From Podocnemis expansa (Eukaryota; Chordata; Testudines; Podocnemididae): DNA of 64,000 nt. Position numbers and translations under genes: made by a program. Each line of letters starts with the position of its first letter. Within the stretch, counting starts at the first letter, position 1. Shown in pieces: positions 1,926 to 58,980 of this stretch. The stretch is from NCBI GenBank assembly GCA_007922195.1, contig ML682005.1, forward strand, positions 24,297,632 through 24,361,631. The letters are read 5' to 3'. The notes under the pieces are model-generated. The model ran no database searches and was not told the DNA's origin. It saw only the letters and a program-made list of their open reading frames with translations.

Positions 1926-3018
1926 AGGATACCATGCTTTTTTTGGCTGAATTAGACTAACAGGGTTGCCCCTCTGATGCTTGGAAGTTTTGTTTTCACT
2001 CCTCACCTCTTTCTTTCTGGCAAAGGTGATTTTTTTTTTGTCTCCTCTGACCTACCTCAATCAGCATATCTTTGTAAAAACAAACAAGGAGTTCTGTGAA
2101 GGGTTACCAGATAACAAAGCATGGGAAGGAGGACATTGGAGGACATGGATAAAATGTAGTAGTAATATAATTGTCATTACTGTATTATGTTGTGGAAATG
2201 GGTAATGATTAATGAATGCTTGGCAGAATGAAAAAAATGGAGAACAAGTTGAACAACAGATATATTCTTAGGCACATTACCTGTAAAACAAGATGTATAA
2301 TACAAAACTGTAACAATAAAATGAGTATTGTTGTGAATATACAGTTTGTGTCAGCAATGTCACGGTAGCATTTAATTGACCAAATTATACCATTCAAAAT
2401 GGTAAACCCTATTCTTGATGTTTATCAGCTGAACCTGTTTTTGTCAATAGGCTATCATTGTCAAGAATATGAGTTAAATTCCTCACATGATGTCATTCAG
2501 ATTATACTGAATTAAAATAATGCCCTTCACAGATTCAACTGATAATTGATTCCTTTCCTGTCCACTGAGCATTGATAAGAAAGAAAACCCATACTACATT
2601 GGCATTATCTCCAGGAATGCTGGAAAAAAAAAATCCAGCAATTCTGTAAAGCAGCCCACATTATCAGTTTCATCCTACCCCCTGCCTGCCCTCCCCACCC
2701 CAGCTACTGCCCAGGCCTCCTTACTGGTTGGGAACACTGGGAACAAACAGTGGTGGATTAATCAATATCTTGCTTCAGAAAGAGCTGGGTGAAGAGGAAT
2801 CAGTAAGAAGTGTTATCTCAAAAGGGCTGCCGTCTACTGCAAAATGACTCAGTTTGTCTGTACACAAAGACTGTACAGCTTTATACTGGTGTAAAGCAAG
2901 ACAACCCTCACCAAGGCTTGTATGGGAGTCTAAAAGAAGAATTTAGCCCTCAAGAGGTATTTCCTATGTACTGGTATAACTATATCAGGGTGGCTAAAAG
3001 CGCTGACAATTTTACTGG

Positions 3019-3092
3019 TATAACAAAAACAACAAGAGTCCTGTGGCACCTGATAGACTAACAGATTTCTTCAGGCAAGCTTTTGTGAATAG
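3019..3092 (+). repeat. Palindromic retroposon fragment, GTGGCACCTGATAGACTAAC variant
   Basis: Fragment beginning acaagagtcctgtggcacc, with agactaacagatttcttc and caagcttttgtg. This is the cttcg/aagctttcg subfamily also seen at 13240-13456. It lies inside the 2099-4059 hAT-like element. Confidence 0.6.
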
Positions 3093-3325
3093 CAAAATAT
3101 CAAACAATGAATGTTGCTGAAGAGAAGGAGGAAAGAAACCTATTGTATTGTCACAGCACACAGAACTGCCCACACCACAACAAAAGTGAGAAAGTTACAG
3201 ATCATCTTTAAAATGCCCTGGTGAGAGATCATCTCTTGATATTGGAAAAAACAGTAAAATTGAAAGATGCTCAAAGAATAGCAACAAAAATATTAGATCG
3301 CTGTATAATAAATCATAAAATAATA

Positions 3326-45018: not shown

Positions 45019-45045
45019 GGAAGCCAAGCGCCCCCCATCTCCCTA

Positions 45046-45440
45046 ATGTCAGACAAGGAGTATGCTGACCCAGTGGCACATTTAGATCAAGATAAGTGGG
45101 GGATACCTATAGTATATGTAGAATTTAATAAGGGAGCATTCAGACAAAATATGTTAGTTGATACAGGTGCCACTTTTTCCTTGATCAGTACTAAGAAACA
45201 GAATTTATTTGGATCTCCAGTAGCAATACGAAATTTGCAGGGTTCAATGAAGCAGAAAGTAGAGTGCCATTTAGTCGTTTAATAAACTTTAAATTATGAA
45301 ACAATTACGGAAAAGGGCAATTTGGCCTAATTAATTAAGATGGTAATGGAATACTAGGCATGGACATTTTAAAAAGTTTTAAGGTGATAATAGATTTGGT
45401 AAATAACATATTATGGAATATACCTTCAGACGGTACAGGC
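45046..45440 (+). pseudogene. pro: Retroviral aspartic protease (retropepsin), broken
   Basis: The frame 45046-45282 has the active-site motif LVDTGATFSLIS with the catalytic Asp at residue 39 (codon at 45160). A stop at 45280-45282 ends the frame before the flap. After a disrupted stretch, the C-terminal signature GMDILKSFKVIIDL appears in the frame from 45360. It is the ancestral copy for comparison with the extra retropepsin-like domains at 49449 and 50067. Confidence 0.8.
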
Positions 45441-47466: not shown

Positions 47467-48677
47467 CCAGTGTAGGAAAAGAACTAACAGAACAAATTAA
47501 TCTAGTAGCATTACAAAAAAGGGATCCTGAAATAAAGAAATCAGTGGAAAAAGGTAGCTGTCAAGGCTGGAATGTTAAACAGCATGAAACAGGATTAGCG
47601 TTAGCCACAAAAACAAAAGATGACATGCCTGTGTGGGTGGTGCATTTGAACTTAGAACGGAAATAATAGCTTTGGCACATAATCATGGACATTTAGGCAT
47701 TGATAAAACTCTTGATAGATTGCAAATAGCAGGATGGTGACCTAGTATGAGAGCAGATGTAGAACAATATGTAAATAATTGTCTCCCTTGTGCAGCTAAC
47801 AATGCAGATAATAAAATAGTGGAGGGAACATTAGGACACCAGAGACTTGAATTGAAGGTCCATGGTCCAGATTACAGATTGATTATATTGGTCCACTTGC
47901 ACAAATGACCAAGAGAAACAAATATTGCTTAGTAATAGTGGACCCTTTTACTAAATAGGTAGAAGCAATTCCCACTAAAAATAATACAGCCCTAACCATT
48001 GCAAAAGTATTGGTAGATCAAATTATTTCAAGATGGGAATCCTGAAGGAAACAGATTCAGATCAAGGTCCACATTTTGTAAGTGAAATAATAAAAGGGTT
48101 GTGCCAGGCATTTAGAATTAAACAAAGGCTGCATATAGTGGGATATCCTCAATAAAAACAGCATTGAGAAAGGTAGTAAATCTACACGGTAAAGACTGGG
48201 ATCAGAAATTACCTTTAATATTGATGGCTATATAAAGGAACAGTAGCATCTCATGGAGTAACTCCATTCAAAGCTATGACTAGAAGGAACATGAGATTGC
48301 CAGAACAATGGTGGATAGCTGGAAATCCTCCAGATGAGATGCAACCTAAAATACTAACTGATCAAGGGATGCAACAGCTTTTAAAATATGTTTCCAAGGC
48401 TCACAAACAATTAGCCATAGCATTACAAGTAAAAGCTCAACAGATGGATCAAAAACTAGGACCAATCTTACACCGACAAAAATGGCAAATAGGTAATAGA
48501 GTCATGCATAGACAGTGTAAAGAAAAGGATCATGTTTTGTGTCCCATATGGGAAGGACCAGTGAAAATAATTAATAAAGCTAGCCCTACTGTACATTTGT
48601 TAGAAGTTAAGCAGGGGAAAAGGAAGGTCCTAAAATGGTTCCATTCTTCACAAATGAAGAAATGGAAAGGAGATTGA
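47467..48677 (+). pseudogene. pol: Retroviral integrase, broken
   Basis: The N-terminal zinc-binding pattern is visible as HNHGHLGIDKT (H-x3-H spacing) near 47675-47710 and NCLPCAAN (C-x2-C) near 47775-47800. The core shows IDYIGPLAQM near 47880 with the first catalytic Asp, and SDQGPHF near 48055 with the second. The glutamate region near 48150 is damaged. The last frame, 48276-48677, ends with a GPY/F-type module: WQIGNRVMHR, PIWEGPVKIINKASPTVH and LKWFHSSQMKKW. Stops and shifts separate these parts. Confidence 0.8.
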
Positions 48678-48801: not shown

Positions 48802-49802
48802 ATGGCATAACGCATTGAAGAAGATATACTCATAGAGGATGAAATGCTATGAATATTGGAACAAGAAGGAGGAAAACTTCCAGAAATTAGTCTTAAGGAA
48901 ATTGAAGAGTTCTTGATGTCCCGGGACATCAAGACCCCAAAGAGAAACAGCTGAACTCAAATTAATATGCAAGCTAAATTCTGTGAAAGCAGGACTCAGT
49001 CGAGACTATGGGTTCTTTTCCCATTACAAAGGGTAATTTGACTTCAGGCTTCCCATTCTTTGAGCCTGTAAACTGCTCTGATTTGCTGTTACTTTATGAG
49101 CTGATCCTATGTTTTACACCCCCTTGCATTTAGTTTCATTCCTTTCTGTAAGTTCACCCATCTTCGAAGCATCTGAGGACGTGGGATCTTCTCCCACGAA
49201 AGCTCATGCAAAAAATAAATCTGTTAGTCTTAAAGTGCCACACAACTGCTTGTTGTTTTTTTACTGGACTAGACTAACACGGCTATCCCTTTGGAAATTG
49301 ACAGGAACCAAAAACTCAATTCACACAAAGGGTTAATGAAATAGACAGCTTACTCGAAGAGTTCCAGTATGATATACTTAAATCTATAGAGGAAAAAGCC
49401 GCTCAAACAGAAAATCAATTGGAACCAACAACTCCTATTTAATACAGTATGAATATCATAGCTCCACTATTAAAAGACAACCAGAATGAATTGCTAGTAA
49501 TGATGTATGTAAATTTTGACAATGAAGAAATTGGACAAATCTTCTACATAGATCCAAGATCCACACATTCAGTTTTGAATGTAACAACGCTGCCAAGAAT
49601 TCTCCTCCATAGATCACATAAAATGATTAGTATACTAGGAATACCAGGAAAAGTAAAGACAACAATTCCTCTAACCATAAGAGTTGGAAAGAGGAAGATT
49701 CTGAATGTGGAGTTTGGTCTAAGGAAAATAGAGGAAGATGCATATGGAATAATAGGGATTAAAATTCTTAAAGATCTGAGGTGTTCCATTGATTTCAGCT
49801 GA
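48802..49802 (+). pseudogene. Accessory cassette 1: acidic segment plus degenerate retropepsin-like domain
   Basis: It begins with an ATGGCA start and a short glutamate-rich segment (EEDILIEDE, LPEISLKEIEEF) with stops. A palindromic retroposon (about 48960-49295) interrupts it. The frame 49449-49802 (117 codons) then has the retropepsin outline: a beta-rich N-terminus, IDPRSTHSVLN at residues 34-44 where DTGA would stand (Asp kept, Gly lost), and a C-terminal GIIGIKILKDLRCSIDFS, the counterpart of the ILGxDxL...IDL element of retropepsins. The missing DT/SG signature makes it probably inactive even before decay. No RT or integrase follows it. Confidence 0.65.
48960..49295 (-). repeat. Palindromic retroposon family copy inside the retrovirus
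   Basis: Minus-oriented, near full length. It shows ttacacccccttgcatttag, gcatctgaggacgtggg, ctcccacgaaagctcatgc, tctgttagtcttaaagtgcc and, at the head end, tagactaacacggctatccc. The distal part (48960-49080) matches 37110-37215 in reverse. It splits accessory cassette 1, so it inserted after the provirus. Confidence 0.78.
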
Positions 49803-50066
49803 GGCATCCTGTTCCAGTTATTGTGAATAACACATTGATGTAGTAGTAAGGTAAAATAGGGGTTAAGGTAGTGTAAGGTAGGGAGCTAAAATAGTAATAA
49901 AGAATAGGAAATAGTTAAACTCAATAAAATATGTAAAACAATTAAAAAAAGAAGATAGTAATAAAGTGATTTTTTTATATATATGTTTAGTAACAGAGAA
50001 ATGAGGGAGAGTTTAGTAACATACTCAATATTATCATTCTTTTAGTATAATCTGAATAGGTGGAAG

Positions 50067-50480
50067 ATGGAATGTGAAAATGTAGTGAAAACATACGTAG
50101 AGATCCAGGAATTGCCAGTACAGAGAGACAAATTTTTTCATTTGGCAGTAAATGGAAGAATTCACAGTGGGACATTTCAATTTCCACAAATTTTTGTAAT
50201 AGATACTGGAGCAGCGCTTACTATGTTGTATGCAAAGAATAATCCTTGGATGTATGCTCTAACTGATCATAGAAGGTCAATGACTGGGTTCGAGATGACT
50301 GCATATTAAGTATGGGTGACTGCTCCAATAAATATTCTAATTGTAGATAGACTAATTTGTGGAATAAGGGTTGGAGTGAAAGAACTGGATGAAAGTGGTA
50401 ATGGATATTTGGGAATAGATGCTTTAAGTGTATTACGGTGCCAAATTGATCTTAAAAGGATGACATTAAGATTTTCATAA
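50067..50480 (+). pseudogene. Accessory cassette 2: retropepsin-like domain with intact DTGA
   Basis: The frame from 50067 carries FVIDTGAALTML with the catalytic Asp at residue 46 (codon 50202-50204), the canonical signature. It stops at 50307-50309. The same frame continues with a retropepsin C-terminus, GNGYLGIDALSVLRCQIDL, followed by a stop near 50480. Only one stop separates the halves. The preceding N-terminal stretch (KFFHLAVNGRIHSGTF) parallels that of the true protease at 45046 (IPIVYVEFNKGAFRQN). It lies about 1.4 kb downstream of integrase, so it is a second copy of the domain, not the pol-linked one. The acidic N-terminal segment of the other cassettes is absent. Confidence 0.75.
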
Positions 50481-50656
50481 AAATACAGTGTTTAGATGTC
50501 TGTTTTTCATAATACACATGGCTAAGTAAAAAATATTATATATGCATATGTAAAGTTTGAATATTCTTTCTTATTCTAAGGTAAAAGATAGTATTGAGTA
50601 TAAATAGTAAAGATTTGTTTTTATTACAAATAGTTTGTAAGTAGAATAACAAAGAG

Positions 50657-51190
50657 ATGGCTCATCTTGAAGAATTTGAAAAGGTTAGAAATGAGGAACA
50701 TCAGGATGAAAACAATGTGGTTATGGAAGAACTTGAAATAAATGAAAGACAATTGGAAATAGGAGAAGATTTGGAAAGACTGCAAACAGCAAGAAGAAAA
50801 TATGATAAAGAGAGGGGATCCAAATCGGCCCATTGCTCTATTGGGGAGGGATCTCATTGCTCATTCTATTATACTCCCTGCCATGATTAAATATGAAGAT
50901 ACGGTAGATATACAGTGTTATAATTTAAATCTGGATTAAATATCTATTGTAAATATTTATGAGTTAAATCCACCACCTCCTGTATCTGATGCAGCAGCTT
51001 ATACTAATAATTACAGTATATATATTTCATTAAGTAAACCCATATTTGCAAGAATAGGACGGAAAGGTACTAACCACATATCTGGATTATTAAATCTGGG
51101 TAGCAATAAATGTGAAATTATAGGAACTGATGTTCTAAATGAGGCAATATTATTGACCTAAAGGAAATGATAATCAAAGAAAGTGTATAA
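50657..51190 (+). pseudogene. Accessory cassette 3: acidic helical segment plus weak retropepsin-like C-terminus
   Basis: It starts ATGGCT, with 55-60 residues rich in Glu (EEFEKVRNEEHQDENNVV, EELEINERQLEIGEDLERL), probably helical. The frame stops at 50888-50890. Downstream words include NPPPPVSDAAA, ARIGRKGTNHISG and CEIIGTDVLNEA, the last resembling the retropepsin C-terminal element. Cassette 4 has the same NPPPP and GRKGTNH words, so the two are tandem duplicates. No DTGA is visible. Confidence 0.55.
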
Positions 51191-51386
51191 ATAAGTTAGA
51201 GTATACTACATTTAAAATAAAAATGTTACTATGTTATATTCAAATCGTTAGTGACACGTATATTCTTTATTGTTTCAAGAATATTTGTTAAGAAACTAAT
51301 AATGATATTTGTTATACATTATAGGTAGTAAGGTGTATTATTTTTACTGATAGAGTCAGAACAGATTGAGAGTAGATAAAAAGGAA

Positions 51387-52003
51387 ATGGCTAACTTCAA
51401 TGAAGAATTAGAAATAGGAGCAGAGGAGATAGTGGAATGGGATGTCATGGAGGAAGAAGAGATTGTAGAGGAAGGAGGAGCATTTAGAGAGGAAGAGGAA
51501 TGGAACAAAGAATGGGATGAGGATAGTGAGGAGATGGATGAAAATGAACAGAGAGAGAGAGGGAAAGACTTATGGAACTATGGAGAGGAACTAGAGAAGA
51601 AGATGAAAATTGGGATGAGGAATTAGAGAAAGAGACGAAGAATTTTAAGAAAAACCTATTATAAAATTAACTAGAGATTATTTTACGCATCATCTTGTAG
51701 TCCCAATAGAAATCAAGTATCTAGCTAAAGTTAATATTCAATTTTGTCAACTTATTCTAAATTCTATATCCATAATCAATGTATACAATCTGAATCCTCC
51801 TCCACCTGCATCCAATAAATATGAAATAATTGATAATTAATAAGGTTGTATTTATTAAAATGGGAAGGAAAGGAACCAACCACCATATCAGTTTTAAACA
51901 TTTTGGTTCCAGAGGTTATGGAGTTATTGGGGAAGATATCCTAAGAAAAACTGAAGGAACATGAATTGATTTAAAAGAGGTGGTGATTTGGGAAGAAGAA
52001 TAA
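51387..52003 (+). pseudogene. Accessory cassette 4: duplicate of cassette 3
   Basis: It starts ATGGCT and encodes a highly acidic region (NEELEIGAEEIVEWD, MEEEEIVEEGG, EWDEDSEEMDENEQ) up to a stop at 51624-51626. This is followed by NLNPPPPAS, then a GRKGTNH word and a short GEDILRK-type end in shifted frames. It shares the N-terminal acidic design and two central words with cassette 3. The aspartic protease character is weak here and rests on similarity of the C-terminal end. Confidence 0.5.
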
Positions 52004-52250: not shown

Positions 52251-55250
52251 ATGAAGTGGTATTTGTGCTTGTCTTTTTGGGTCTTTGCATACTTGTTCTA
52301 CTGCTATGGTGCTGCAAATGAGACAGCCCTGACTGCAACTGTTAAACTGTGACTGCACAATTAGAAGATTACATCAGACCATCATACCAACCATCAGCAT
52401 TAAGATACATACAAAATGCAGCAAAAGTATCAGTGAGGGAAAAATAGGAAAAAGATACCACAATTCAATTAATCAAATCCAAAGTGCCTTGGAAAATAAA
52501 TAATGTTCAAGGGTATGAATTTACATTACAGAAAATAGATAGACAGGGAGCTATAAATAAAAGGAGTGTCTTTATTATAATGATAGGTATGTTAGAGGCT
52601 ATTACACAAAGAAATACTATAAGAAGTATAGCGACACAATATTTGCATAAATGTTCTCTAAAATTCAATTCTGTAGAACAAGGAAGAGTTGAAACTCATC
52701 CACAATATTACTCAGCCCCTAAACCACCTATATATGGATGTGATAATAACTTGAATAAGGGTAAAATATATGGAAAAATAGCAATACCAGGTAATTGGCA
52801 ATGTGCTATTATAGAAGGACCAAATGTGAATGTGTGATCAGATGCTGAAGCAGTAGAATCAGGAAACGAGTCTTGATGCGGTATCTTTGTATGGAATATT
52901 GGATTATGGAGCAACATTAATACAACAAACATACATGCACAATGGTTCCATAATAAATATCTTGGAACAAGATATAAGTTAACCATTGAAGACCCAAAAG
53001 GAGGTCTCAGTAAACATACATTTAAATGTAAAACACAGATATGCATTATCACTAGAAAGGATATATCATTAATGAAAAAGTATGTAATATATGATATGGA
53101 AAACAAGTAATGTTTTATAATCATTATGAAATAGATGACACCATTACAAGACAGCGTGAAAGTGGAAAATGGAAAATCTTTACTGAGGATTTTAGTTATA
53201 CTTTTCCTTTCACTTGGGTGTCAAAACCAATAATAATGAATATTGGCCCATATGTGGTTAAAACAGACATTAAAAAGCAATTCATGATAGATGCCACATA
53301 TTCAGCAAAAAGGATTATGGTAAATCTAAGACCACTTTCTTCACTAAAACCACAGTGTTGGAATTATACAAAACCTTTAGATCAGGGATGGAAAAGATGG
53401 ATATACACTCAGGTGTTTCCAGAGACTGCAAAGAATAGGAAGAAAAGAAATATAATTGACACTGCTTTAGGAGGCACAGGAACCAGATTAGGAATTCTTA
53501 ATAGTATAGATGTAGAGATATTAGCAAATAAATCAAGTATGATAGGTAAACAGTTGAGAAGCTTGGCTAAACTGTTAAAAACTTCTTTAACAGAAATGAG
53601 TTCAAGCGAACATATAACAGCAAATTTACTTCCAGAATGGGAAAAGTTTCAAAGAACAGATCATTCTAGATGGAGTGGAAATGTTACAAAGTAATTTATC
53701 TTTAGCTTTAGCTTTTATGCAAGCACAAGTATGGGTAAATGATATAGTAAAAGCTATTATTAGAGATGGTATGAGTGGAATTTTACCTTTAGAAATAAGA
53801 AGTGTAATGTGGAAATGTATCTAAACTGGAAACGGGTTTACAGGGGTGGTGGAAAATGATCAGTTTTACTTACAATCCACAGGATGATCAGATTATTGTG
53901 TATGTAGTCACTATTTCTAAGGCTCAAGTAGAATGGATATCTCCAGTAATCGCATTAGGAATAAATGTAAATTCTAGTGTAATGCAACCAACTGGATATA
54001 GGTTATGGGCAATAAGACAACATGATACTTGCAGAACTGCAGAACTTGAAGCTTGTAATGAGGAATTAGGTATTGGATATGTTTGTAATAGTAGTGCTAT
54101 CCAATCATGTGATCTTTGTCTAAACAGAGATAAAGGAGAGTGTTATTGTCGTTTAGAACCATGTTCCTCAAATGAATCATTTATTATATATGTTGGAAAA
54201 ACTTGTGTATGTATCAGAAGTCGGTGCACATTGTTTAAAGTGAAATATGTATATGATGTTGTTCATGATCCTTTTGAGAATCAATGTTTATATAACGTTA
54301 TGTCTTTAGTACAGTGTGACGTTAAATACACTTTACCCCTAACAGTTTATAAAGAAATTAGAGACCAATATCAATTATATGAACAAATAAGCCCAATTCC
54401 ATTATGCATAAATGTCACTTTAGTTAAAGAATCAATAAAACATCCTAATTTACAGGAACAGGTAGAAAACGTAAAGGAAACTGCACGAAATGAATTCATT
54501 ATGGTGCAGCATTCCGCAAGGCAAATTGAACAGGTAATGGAATGAATTAGAGGAATTTCAAAACATAGCTGGTGGAGAATATTCTTAGGACTATCTCCTA
54601 CAACCAGTAAATATTTAAATATTTTGTTCCACCCCATTGTAATGCTATTAATAGCACAGAGTGCCTTAGCTATCACACTTATGGTGTTGATGTTCTGGGT
54701 AAAAAGAAAGATTAACAAAATAAAGTTCATGTTCCTCCTCCAAAGTGGTAGAATGTACAATAATTCCCTAGTAAATACAATCCATAAAGAATCCATGTAC
54801 GAGGACTTGTGCCAGTACGAAGATATGCAGGGGTGTTGCTGGCGTTGGGCATTCCGGGGCACGTGCCCCAAACCCTAGCGCCAGTGCCCCAGATCTCTAG
54901 CCCAATCGGGCCACAGATCTGGGGCCCAGCTGCCTGCGGCTGCACCAGTCCCCTCCCCGCGTGGGGATGTGGGGCCTGGCCACCCACGGTGGCGCCTGGG
55001 CCTGGCCCTGGCCAGGGGGCATGGCCTGCAGGCTGGGGGCAGGGGCGGGGCCTAGGCCCATGCCCCAGGTCCCTCCCCCAGCCAGCGATGCCCCTGAAGA
55101 TATGACAGCTTGGTTTCCTAGCAAAGAAAACCTTGAGCTCAAACTGAACAAGAAACTTGAAAAATGGATCACAAGTGAGAACTTGTGCCAGTGTGAAGAT
55201 CTAATTGCTCTGTCTCCCTGTGTAAGGTTTCTTTTATTTTTACTTTCATT
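52251..55250 (+). pseudogene. env: Endogenous retroviral envelope gene, broken
   Basis: The ATG at 52251 opens a hydrophobic signal-peptide-like segment of about 20 residues. It is stopped by TGA at 52350-52352. Surface-subunit-like sequence follows in 52484-52837 and 53110-53694. A basic NRKKRN cleavage-type site lies near 53432-53450, followed by GGTGTRLGILNSIDVE and a helical stretch. After a frame change, 53856-54545 carries a cysteine-rich domain (clusters of Cys at about 54040-54230) and potential N-glycosylation sites. A stop (54543-54545) precedes a membrane span (about 54630-54700, LLIAQSALAITLMVLMFW) followed by a basic KRK anchor. The cytoplasmic tail is split by a GC-rich element at 54828-55096. 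At least two stops, one frame change and one insertion make it non-functional. Confidence 0.8.
54828..55096. mobile_element. GC-rich hAT-like MITE, copy 1, in the env tail
   Basis: The ends caggggtgttgctgg and ccagcgatgcccctg are inverted repeats. A perfect 8-bp duplication, aagatatg, lies at 54820-54827 and 55097-55104. 269 bp, very GC-rich in an AT-rich setting. Confidence 0.92.
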
Positions 55251-55316: not shown

Positions 55317-55748
55317 CAGGAGTGTTGCTGCCCCAAGGAGGGACCCAGGGCACCAGCCCAGGCCCTGCCCCTGGCCTGCAGGCCCTGTCCCCAGCCCGCA
55401 GACCACACCCCCTTGCAGGGGACAGGGCCGGAAGCCACTGTGTGCCGCCATGGGTGGCTGGGCCCTGCATCCCCGGCTGGGGCCAGGGCCGGAAGTGGCT
55501 GTGGGCGGGTGGCTGGGCACAGCATCCCTGGCCAGGGATGGGGCTGGGAGCAGCTGTGGGTGGCTGGGCCCCGGATCCCCAGCCAGGGATGAGGCCAGAG
55601 TGGCTGCCACTGCTGCAGGCGGCTGAGCCCCGGATCTCCGGCCCGATCAGGCCAGAGACCGGGAGACGTGGGACCTCGCCCGACCCAGGGCACTAGTGCC
55701 AGGATTTGGGGCATGGGCCCCGTGTGCCTGGCGCCAGCGACGCCCCTG
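55317..55748. mobile_element. GC-rich hAT-like MITE, copy 2
   Basis: The ends caggagtgttgct and agcgacgcccctg are inverted repeats, with a perfect 8-bp duplication, gttaaagt, at 55309-55316 and 55749-55756. 432 bp. The core has repeated ccagccagggatg/gatccccagcc words. Frames of 68-132 codons on both strands across it are composition artefacts. Confidence 0.92.
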
Positions 55749-57848: not shown

Positions 57849-58980
57849 AATGTTCCCTCTAAGCTGCACCAGTGAGGCACAACAACCCCTGACCCCAGCA
57901 CAGGTCTAGCAGCCACAAGCCATGCCTGGCCCCAGAAACATTTCTCCTGGGCGCCAGGAAGCCTGGGGTGGGGCTGGCAGGGAGCAGAAGCAGAAGCGGA
58001 GGAGCCAGGGGATTGGGGCTGGTGGGGAGCGGAAGAGCCGGGCAATCAGGGCTGGTGTGGAGAAGAGGAGCCGGGGGATTGGGGCTAGCGGGGAGTGGAA
58101 GAGCCGGAGGATTGGGGCTGGTGGGGAGCGGAGGATCGGGGCTGGCGGGGAGTGGAAGAGCCGGGCGATCAGGGCTGGTGTGGAGCGGAGGAGCTGGACC
58201 ATTGGGGCTGGCGGGGAGTAGAGGAGCCAGAGAATCAGGGCTGGTGGGGAGTGGAGGATTGGGGCTGGAGGGGAGCAGAGGAGCTGGACGATCGGGGCTG
58301 GCGGGGAGCGGAGGAGCCAGAGGATCGGGACTGGTGGGGAGCAGAAGATGGGGAGTGGAGGAGCCGGGGTGGGGGCTCCCGCGCTGGGGGCAGGTTAGAA
58401 GCGGGGGTAAGCTCATGCCATGTGGGGGGGAGGGGAATGTTGATGTGTAAGGAAACGTATTGTTTCCTTTTCAAGTCACCACTGCAATTGTCTTGCACCA
58501 AACTGTTGGCTGTACGCTTTGTCATTTTGTGTTATGAATTTGTGAAGCTGCTTTGTGGGATGGCTTGATGTCAAGAAATATAAAGGTATTGGAAGTTTTA
58601 AGATGGCATGGCTAAATGAATTAATTACAACTGAGACTATGGAATCTGGAGAGGTGCAGCATGTCAAATCGGGTCAGCTATTTTCTTACTCTGAGGACAA
58701 TGGCGTATTATGCTTGTCATGTGCAGAAGCCAAGACAAGCTGTGATTTTGCTAAAGGAAAGACATGGAGTTCATGGAAGATTGACTATTCGGAGAGGCAT
58801 CTCAATCAGAAAATCTATACAATGTTCCCTCTCTAAGCTGGTGACACAACTGAGCAAGTTATGGATGCACTTGGGGAGCCAATGGGCAGTGAGTGGCTGA
58901 GGGGCCCGGCCCGGGCCCAGGAACTTGCTCAGCTGCATCCATAAGTTGCTCAGCTGCATCATCGGCTTAGAGGGAACACT
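57849..58980 (+). mobile_element. hAT-like element, 1.13 kb, with minisatellite and transposase remnant
   Basis: The ends caatgttccctctaagctg and gcttagagggaacactg are inverted repeats. A gttaag word flanks both sides, and the exact 8-bp duplication is not certain. 57960-58370 is a GC-rich minisatellite with units of 36 bp and shorter (ggggctggtggggagcgga, agagccgg), all multiples of three, so frames stay open on both strands. 58555-58836 contains the transposase-like remnant listed separately. A second left-end-like word (caatgttccctctctaagctg) sits at 58813, suggesting a partial internal duplication. Confidence 0.7.
58555..58836 (+). pseudogene. Remnant of a hAT-type transposase zinc finger (ZNF862/TTF-like N-terminus)
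   Basis: A 93-codon frame. GSFKMAWLNELITT (about residues 13-26) is followed by SEDNGVLCLSCAEAKTSCDF (about 46-65) and AKGKTWSSWKIDYSERHLNQ. This matches the pattern of the zinc finger at the N-terminus of hAT transposases and of host proteins derived from them: -K-F---WL-E---, then NGV-C--C--A-----F--G---W-----  -RH. C-x2-C and the following His are present. The DDE catalytic and dimerisation parts are absent. It lies inside an element with hAT-like ends, which supports the assignment. Function as a host exon is possible but nothing in the sequence requires it. Confidence 0.6.

What the first reader, a model, noticed from the sequence alone, without database searches (positions are those of the whole stretch)
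48802..52003. Four tandem accessory cassettes with extra retropepsin-like domains between pol and env of a retrovirus
Downstream of integrase and upstream of env there are four successive cassettes separated by similar AT-rich spacers. Cassette 2 has an intact IDTGA active-site motif and a retropepsin C-terminal element. Cassette 1 keeps the fold outline with IDPRS in place of DTGA. Cassettes 3 and 4 share NPPPP and GRKGTNH words and an acidic N-terminus. Retroviruses normally have one protease, between gag and RT. Repeated capture and divergence of the protease into accessory genes would be a novel strategy, for example inactive decoys, dimer partners or regulators. I have an unverified recollection that the avian endogenous retrovirus Ovex1 also has an extra protease domain; if so, this may be an expanded relative.
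Basis: partly seen in the sequence, partly recalled or inferred. Interest (0 to 1): 0.88.

Follow-up and report, generated by a model that had tools for sequence, protein, structure and literature searches.

The report
Retrovirus with tandem pseudo-protease accessory genes
An old retrovirus in this animal genome belongs to a family that copied its own protease several times into a row of small extra genes between pol and env, most of which lost the cutting residues yet were kept by selection.

Summary
The window carries a decayed provirus with four retropepsin-like cassettes between integrase and env. It is not a one-copy oddity: the same genome holds 125 matches to cassette 1, and 50 of the 51 next-best integrase relatives have a cassette downstream. 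The copy on contig C1242 carries five cassettes in a row, all intact ORFs (A 162, B 208, C 173, D 170, E 168 aa), besides its ordinary protease. A and B are homologous to the virus's own protease and to solved retropepsins; C, D and E are tied in through A and B. In-frame dN/dS is 0.21-0.29 for A-C, against 0.73-1.40 out of frame. Catalysis looks lost: class A has Asn for the catalytic Asp in 12 of 12, B lacks TG in 13 of 13, C/D/E lack the Asp in 15 of 15. Class X (window cassette 2) keeps DTG in the three copies read. Best reading: the viral protease was serially duplicated into mostly non-catalytic, acidic-tailed accessory proteins; partners unknown. The Ovex1 recollection is not supported.

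The parts
45019..45279 (+). ordinary protease, N-terminal piece with DTGA (gag-pol position)
   Evidence: PF13650 E=0.0022, PF13975 0.0038, below cut-offs
45339..45434 (+). ordinary protease, C-terminal piece
   Evidence: same lineage as P0002 and many genome copies
48225..48677 (+). integrase C-terminal part, directly upstream of the cassettes
   Evidence: 150 genome matches; SH3_Tf2-1 E=0.0088, below cut-off
48802..49802 (+). cassette 1, class B; retropepsin-like domain 49443-49799 with IDPRS; N-part broken
   Evidence: class B match E=3e-58; 125 genome matches
48984..49299 (.). dispersed repeat inserted in cassette 1 (not part of the gene)
   Evidence: 74-82% matches elsewhere in the window
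50067..50480 (+). cassette 2, class X; DTGA kept; in-frame stop at 50307
   Evidence: matches classes B 5e-11 and A 4e-7; 27 genome matches of its N piece
50657..51161 (+). cassette 3, C/D/E type; frame-broken
   Evidence: class D match 7e-12, C 7e-7
51387..51994 (+). cassette 4, C/D/E type; frame-broken
   Evidence: class D match 3e-9, C 7e-9; DNA repeat of cassette 3
52448..54875 (+). env pieces downstream of the cassettes
   Evidence: position and matches in L070, L072, L074-L076; no Pfam match in the four pieces scanned

Best explanation
A lineage of retroviruses duplicated its own aspartic protease (retropepsin) into the region between pol and env, and that copy was duplicated again, giving a row of up to about five small accessory genes, each an acidic N-terminal part followed by a retropepsin-like domain. 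Shown by sequence: homology, order, intact ORFs in many copies, selection on the protein, and loss of the catalytic residues in classes A-E. Inferred: the source was the virus's own protease; each cassette is made as a separate protein from its own mRNA; the domain still folds and pairs like a retropepsin but does not cut; it works as a binding module (adaptor or decoy for host or viral proteins), as accessory proteins of complex retroviruses commonly do. Class X, with DTG, may be a less changed copy, still active or lately active. Confidence: protease-derived accessory gene array about 0.95; non-catalytic binding as the main mode about 0.6.
For: Many copies with intact ORFs; 50 of 51 close integrase relatives carry a cassette; own protease kept besides; protease vs A 8.5e-8, vs B 1.1e-7, vs A+B 1.7e-11, A+B vs C+D+E 2.9e-14 as single profile comparisons, shuffles far lower for A, B, A+B; cassette-only A+B profile finds DDI2 2.6e-5 and DDI1 7.8e-5 in PDB; L020 class B passes PF13650's cut-off; own proteases score 34-39 bits against 27.5 for DDI2; dN/dS 0.21-0.29 in frame against 0.73-1.40 out of frame; catalytic residues lost; acidic N-part in all five classes.
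Against: C, D and E match the protease only weakly (5e-4 together; C alone 0.14, below its reversed control) and are tied in through A and B. A, C and D of L020 match no Pfam family. Two AlphaFold jobs on window cassette 1 failed (pLDDT 37 and 33), so there is no structural support. Acceptor-like sites are not seen before every cassette. No expression or binding data exist here. The margin of own protease over DDI2 is modest.
Confidence: 0.72

Rival explanations
1. The cassettes regulate the virus's own protease: an inactive copy, above all class A with Asn, pairs with a genuine protease monomer into a dead heterodimer and so delays Gag-Pol cleavage.
For: Asn for Asp with the neighbouring T-G mostly kept in class A, 12 of 12 Asn; D25N is used to inactivate HIV-1 protease and still yields a folded protease-sized fragment (PMC13411501, passages).
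Against: Five diverged classes are more than one inhibitor needs; C, D and E have lost the whole motif; no pairing data.
Confidence: 0.2
2. Some cassettes are extra working proteases with other targets, above all class X (window cassette 2).
For: X keeps DTG in the window, L070 and L072.
Confidence: 0.1
3. The first cassette was captured from a host retropepsin such as DDI1/DDI2 or ASPRV1, or from another retrovirus, not from this virus's protease.
For: The best PDB matches of the A+B profile are DDI2 and DDI1; retroviral capture of host genes between pol and env is known (PMC4299795, passages).
Against: The lineage's own proteases score higher with the same profile, 34-39 against 27.5 bits. 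The difference is modest, other ERV proteases of this genome were not scored, and the deep order of the tree is unresolved.
Confidence: 0.08
4. The cassettes are dUTPases, which were once called pseudoproteases in retroviruses.
For: Historical precedent (PMC4531489, passages); a dUTPase lies downstream of integrase in some ERV3 (PMC4299795, passages).
Against: No dUTPase family at E<=1 for the window pieces or L020 A-D; profile matches run along the retropepsin domain.
Confidence: 0.01
5. Chance resemblance, or an insertion in this copy only.
For: Single-copy Pfam and PDB matches are weak.
Against: In-window ranking, the multi-copy family, selection in frame.
Confidence: 0.01

Closest known systems
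Retroviral protease (retropepsin; PF00077, PF13650, PF13975)
   Same: Domain homology along the whole profile for classes A and B
   Different: Separate genes after integrase, several per virus, catalytic residues lost in A-E
Foamy-like ERVs of ray-finned fish, acc3/acc4 between pol and env and paralogous acc1a/acc1b (PMC5512871, passages)
   Same: Accessory ORFs between pol and env; tandem duplication of an accessory gene
   Different: Those have no known domain according to the paper; I could not compare sequences
Bovine immunodeficiency virus dUTPase-related gene (PMC4261571, search listing only)
   Same: By its title and abstract start, a retroviral enzyme-derived gene needed for replication though its activity is lost
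   Different: dUTPase, a single gene
CrocERV29 with captured KIT-ligand between pol and env (PMC4299795, passages)
   Same: Extra gene in the same place
   Different: Host gene, single, not a protease
Ovex1 and its relatives SpeV and CrocERV37-39 (PMC2717909, PMC4299795, passages)
   Same: By eye, a similar word at the integrase C-terminus (W.GPV) and protease word (M.(V/I)DTGA)
   Different: Ovex1: one protease, no obvious accessory ORFs, per the paper; no tree with it was made here

Membership tests
Retropepsin superfamily (by descent) | Sequence homology along the domain | tested here: met
   A and B: (B only). C, D, E only through A and B
Retropepsin superfamily (by descent) | Common retropepsin fold and dimer | tested here: inconclusive
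   Two low-confidence AlphaFold models of cassette 1; dimer not testable
Active aspartic protease | Catalytic D-T/S-G | tested here: not met
   A-E: 0 of 40 intact ORFs. Class X: present in 3 copies read
Accessory genes of complex retroviruses | ORFs outside gag, pro, pol and env shared by related proviruses | tested here: met
   50 of 51 close relatives
Accessory genes of complex retroviruses | Selection on the protein | tested here: met
   dN/dS 0.21-0.29 in frame, 0.73-1.40 out of frame for A-C; D two pairs only; E not tested
Accessory genes of complex retroviruses | Expression from spliced mRNA | tested here: inconclusive
   Acceptor-like scan mixed: env p about 0.03, C 0.075-0.31, D 0.04-0.37, A 0.03-0.87, B 0.21-0.96; no RNA data
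Ovex1 lineage | RT phylogeny with Ovex1, SpeV, CrocERV37-39 | not tested
   No reference sequences at hand
Ovex1 lineage | Single protease, no accessory ORFs | tested here: not met
   against PMC2717909 passages
Retroviral dUTPase | dUTPase family match | tested here: not met
   None at E<=1 for window cassette pieces or L020 A-D

The most novel reading that the evidence does not exclude
This retrovirus lineage runs a protease-paralog system: five or more pseudo-proteases and, in one branch, a second protease with DTG. They pair with one another and with the genuine protease through the retropepsin dimer surface, so that different pairs regulate maturation and hold host proteins without cutting them.
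Probability: 0.25. Interest if true: 0.95.

Novelty: new variant of a known kind. Interest (0 to 1): 0.85.

Why it matters
Accessory genes are where retroviruses meet host defences, and the origins of many are obscure (general knowledge). Here an origin can be read off: a protease, very likely the virus's own, duplicated in steps, with recognisable stages (DTG, NTG, DP, none) in one genome. It offers a natural set of dead retropepsins kept by selection, a testable case of enzyme-to-binder evolution, and a reason to look again at unassigned ORFs between pol and env of other ERVs. I saw no description of protease-derived accessory genes in the listings of nine searches of the open-access library, nor in the passages read of seven papers (PMC4299795 twice, so six distinct papers); subscription papers and repeat databases were not searched.

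Tried and rejected
Led nowhere: viral-contig scans with integrase, RT and class B found no relatives. The protein search with cassette 1 and with the A-E alignment found none; the one with protease plus cassettes found P0001 (4e-4) and P0002 (9e-4), which I read as close protease relatives of this ERV, and P0003/P0004, not significant. PDB phmmer with single pieces gave unrelated proteins or nothing. AlphaFold failed twice; no fold search was run. No LTR pair for the window copy; the one strong hit overlaps the dispersed repeat. A lineage word pattern that I guessed matched 0 of 5 proteases and was dropped. My protease extraction found nothing and was redone. One search gave impossible scores (131-133) among its shuffles for A+B and C+D+E; I did not establish the cause, and a rerun that removes the old output file first did not repeat them. 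In one search class C scored 14.7 against the protease but 21.7 reversed.

Considered and rejected: chance or one-copy insertion; dUTPase.

Dropped or chosen rows: one search used hand-chosen ORFs that are naturally stop-free, and pairs with dS defined and above 0.02 (class D kept 2 pairs of 21). One search used 11 A, 11 B and 7 C copies for the frame test, and 13 distinct stop-free integrase copies from 29 loci. One search used coordinates typed from lists: the best 55 integrase rows other than the window's own (51 after dropping twin contigs), 41 E rows, and the rows I judged to be C/D class. Its script found 43 of 51; seven more were added by eye; C35:21509544 has no cassette in those lists. 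The tree used a chosen 31 rows.
Full report
Setting. On the + strand is an old provirus: gag pieces from about 43.15 kb, protease 45019-45434 in two pieces, RT, RNase H and integrase to 48677, the four cassettes, then env pieces to 54875. RT and RNase H are identified by Pfam; gag and env by position and, for env, by matches in relatives. No LTR pair was found.

The cassettes in the window. Cassette 1 runs from an ATG at 48802 to 49802, split by a dispersed repeat (48984-49299). Cassette 2 runs from 50067 to 50480 with one in-frame stop; cassettes 3 (50657-51161) and 4 (51387-51994) are frame-broken. In a search of 2043 six-frame ORFs of 20 aa or more, the protease C-terminal piece finds c2, c1 and c4 as its best non-self matches (47, 44, 35; the next, unrelated, 34); c1 finds c2 at 4e-6, and c3 and c4 find each other at about 1e-6. 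By themselves the decayed pieces are weak: Pfam gives 0.038 for c2 and no retropepsin match for the others; PDB profiles without protease rows found none. The profile with protease rows listed 13 entries at E<=10: DDI1-type proteins, XMRV-type p14, retroviral-like aspartic protease 1, and two deposited as UBA-domain or ubiquitin-family proteins; best 0.022.

The family in the genome. A search with cassette 1 gave 125 matches (150 of 281 candidates scored). Many copies are far less decayed. In L020 (contig C1242) four ORFs follow integrase: A 693-1181, B 1252-1878, C 2022-2543, D 2726-3238; L076, further along the same contig, adds E at 1651-2157, before env. The 40 ORFs used below (12 A, 13 B, 7 C, 7 D, 1 E) were picked as intact: all start with Met and have no stop. 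This copy keeps its ordinary protease at C1242:4367-4768. Window c1 is class B (3e-58); c3 and c4 are of the C/D/E type; c2 is a further class, X. L070, of the window's kind, has the order B, A, X, two C/D-type cassettes, env; L069 and L072 begin B, A, X likewise. No separate A match lies between c1 and c2 of the window, so I infer that this copy lost A. L074 has A (split) and B and then env, without C-E matches, so the number of cassettes varies.

Generality. Of the 55 best integrase matches other than the window's own (63-80% identity), 51 remain after removing twin contigs; 43 have a match to the cassette-1 query within 2.6 kb downstream. Reading by eye adds seven, so 50 of 51; the exception is C35:21509544. 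In 32 loci a B is followed by an E within 4.5 kb, in 18 of them with at least two C/D-class matches between (rows typed from capped lists, so lower bounds). Two copies of a deeper branch (integrase about 50%: L077, L078) still have B matches, and L078 also an A-like domain with ALNTGASFSIV. Some long-frame integrase relatives at 43-46% (C1:33132764, C78:12182742, C67:1354598) show no cassette match nearby, but decayed ones at similar identity do (C57:11892176, C156:192316, C31:10041719); the DNA of the former could not be fetched, so the time of gain is open.

Homology to protease. Between classes, single phmmer comparisons give A-B 5e-12, A-D 7e-13, B-D 1e-7, C-D 5e-27, but B-C 0.002 and A-C 0.02. 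Profile-profile comparison gives protease vs A 8.5e-8, vs B 1.1e-7, vs A+B 1.7e-11; A+B vs C+D+E 2.9e-14; but protease vs C+D+E only 5e-4, vs D 8e-4, vs E 0.004, vs C 0.14. Shuffled columns (40 per class) reached score 22.3 at most, against 50.7, 51.0 and 71.1 for A, B and A+B, and 30.6 and 28.4 for D and C+D+E; class C alone scores below its reversed control. From outside, the A+B profile without protease rows matches five PDB sequences at E<=10: DDI2 2.6e-5, DDI1 7.8e-5, two deposited as UBA-domain and ubiquitin-family proteins (5e-4, 0.006), and XMRV-type protease 0.47. The class B protein of L020 just passes PF13650's cut-off (24.6 against 24.3 bits) and reaches PF13975 at 7e-6, below cut-off; A, C and D of L020 match no Pfam family. 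The same A+B profile gives five proteases of the lineage 34-39 bits and DDI2 27.5. A tree recovers protease, A, B, C, D and the X C-halves each as one group and C+D+E together (99/98); the deeper order is unresolved and the tool warns of long branches.

Active site. In a joint alignment, protease 5 of 5 DTGA; A, Asn for Asp in 12 of 12; B, Asp kept but TG replaced in 13 of 13; C, D, E, no Asp in 15 of 15, though the alignment is least sure for C-E. In five further A copies read by eye the residue is N in L069, L072, L073 and L078 and I in L070. X keeps DTG in the window, L070 and L072; L069 lacks the stretch.

Selection. With intact ORFs as they stand, median pairwise dN/dS is 0.29 for A (12 copies), 0.22 for B (13), 0.23 for C (7); D gives two usable pairs, 0.08 and 0.12. 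On the subset used for the frame test the values are 0.29, 0.21 and 0.23, and the other two frames give 0.73-1.40; integrase gives 0.10. So the frames evolved as protein-coding genes, under weaker constraint than integrase. Pairs share history and are not independent; choosing stop-free copies favours the better kept ones.

How it may work. The five classes each have an acidic N-part (25-33% Asp+Glu) and a domain that is near neutral (A) or basic (B-E). Loss of catalysis with the domain kept, divergence into several classes, and the place between pol and env fit accessory proteins that bind rather than cut; this is inference. The Asn of class A is the same change as D25N, used to inactivate HIV-1 protease, where a folded protease-sized fragment still forms (PMC13411501, passages). 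Regulation of the genuine protease by mixed dimers is therefore a live rival, mainly for A. Splicing is open: acceptor-like sites stand before env, before C and D in several copies and before A in two of four, not before B. Structure prediction failed.

Comparison. Accessory ORFs between pol and env, and paralogous accessory genes, are known in fish foamy-like ERVs (PMC5512871, passages). Capture of a host gene there is known in a crocodilian ERV (PMC4299795, passages). Retroviral dUTPases were once called pseudoproteases (PMC4531489, passages). None of these, as seen in those passages, is a duplicated protease. Ovex1 has one protease and no obvious accessory ORFs (PMC2717909, passages).

Noticed in passing
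L014:664-1881 (G000:C155:2025833-2029186): A 406-aa open frame joins C2H2 zinc fingers in frame to a whole class B cassette with an A-like piece downstream; a candidate host-virus fusion gene.
   Followed up: partly
48984-49299: Dispersed repeat, family not identified, inserted in cassette 1, with at least eight further matches in the window on both strands.
   Followed up: partly
55410-55612 and 57977-58378: GC-rich repeats after env and a 33-nt-step tandem array.
   Followed up: no
G000:C1:33132764, C67:1354598, C78:12182742: Integrase relatives at 43-46% identity with long open frames and no cassette match nearby: a possible sister lineage from before the gain, not fetched.
   Followed up: no
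contigs C1207/C1242, C903/C904, C1166/C1190: Pairs of contigs hold the same copy at the same coordinates, probably two assemblies of one locus; C38/C39 and C1324/C1325 look alike.
   Followed up: partly
P0001, P0002: Protease relatives of this ERV from short contigs of another public source, host not given.
   Followed up: partly
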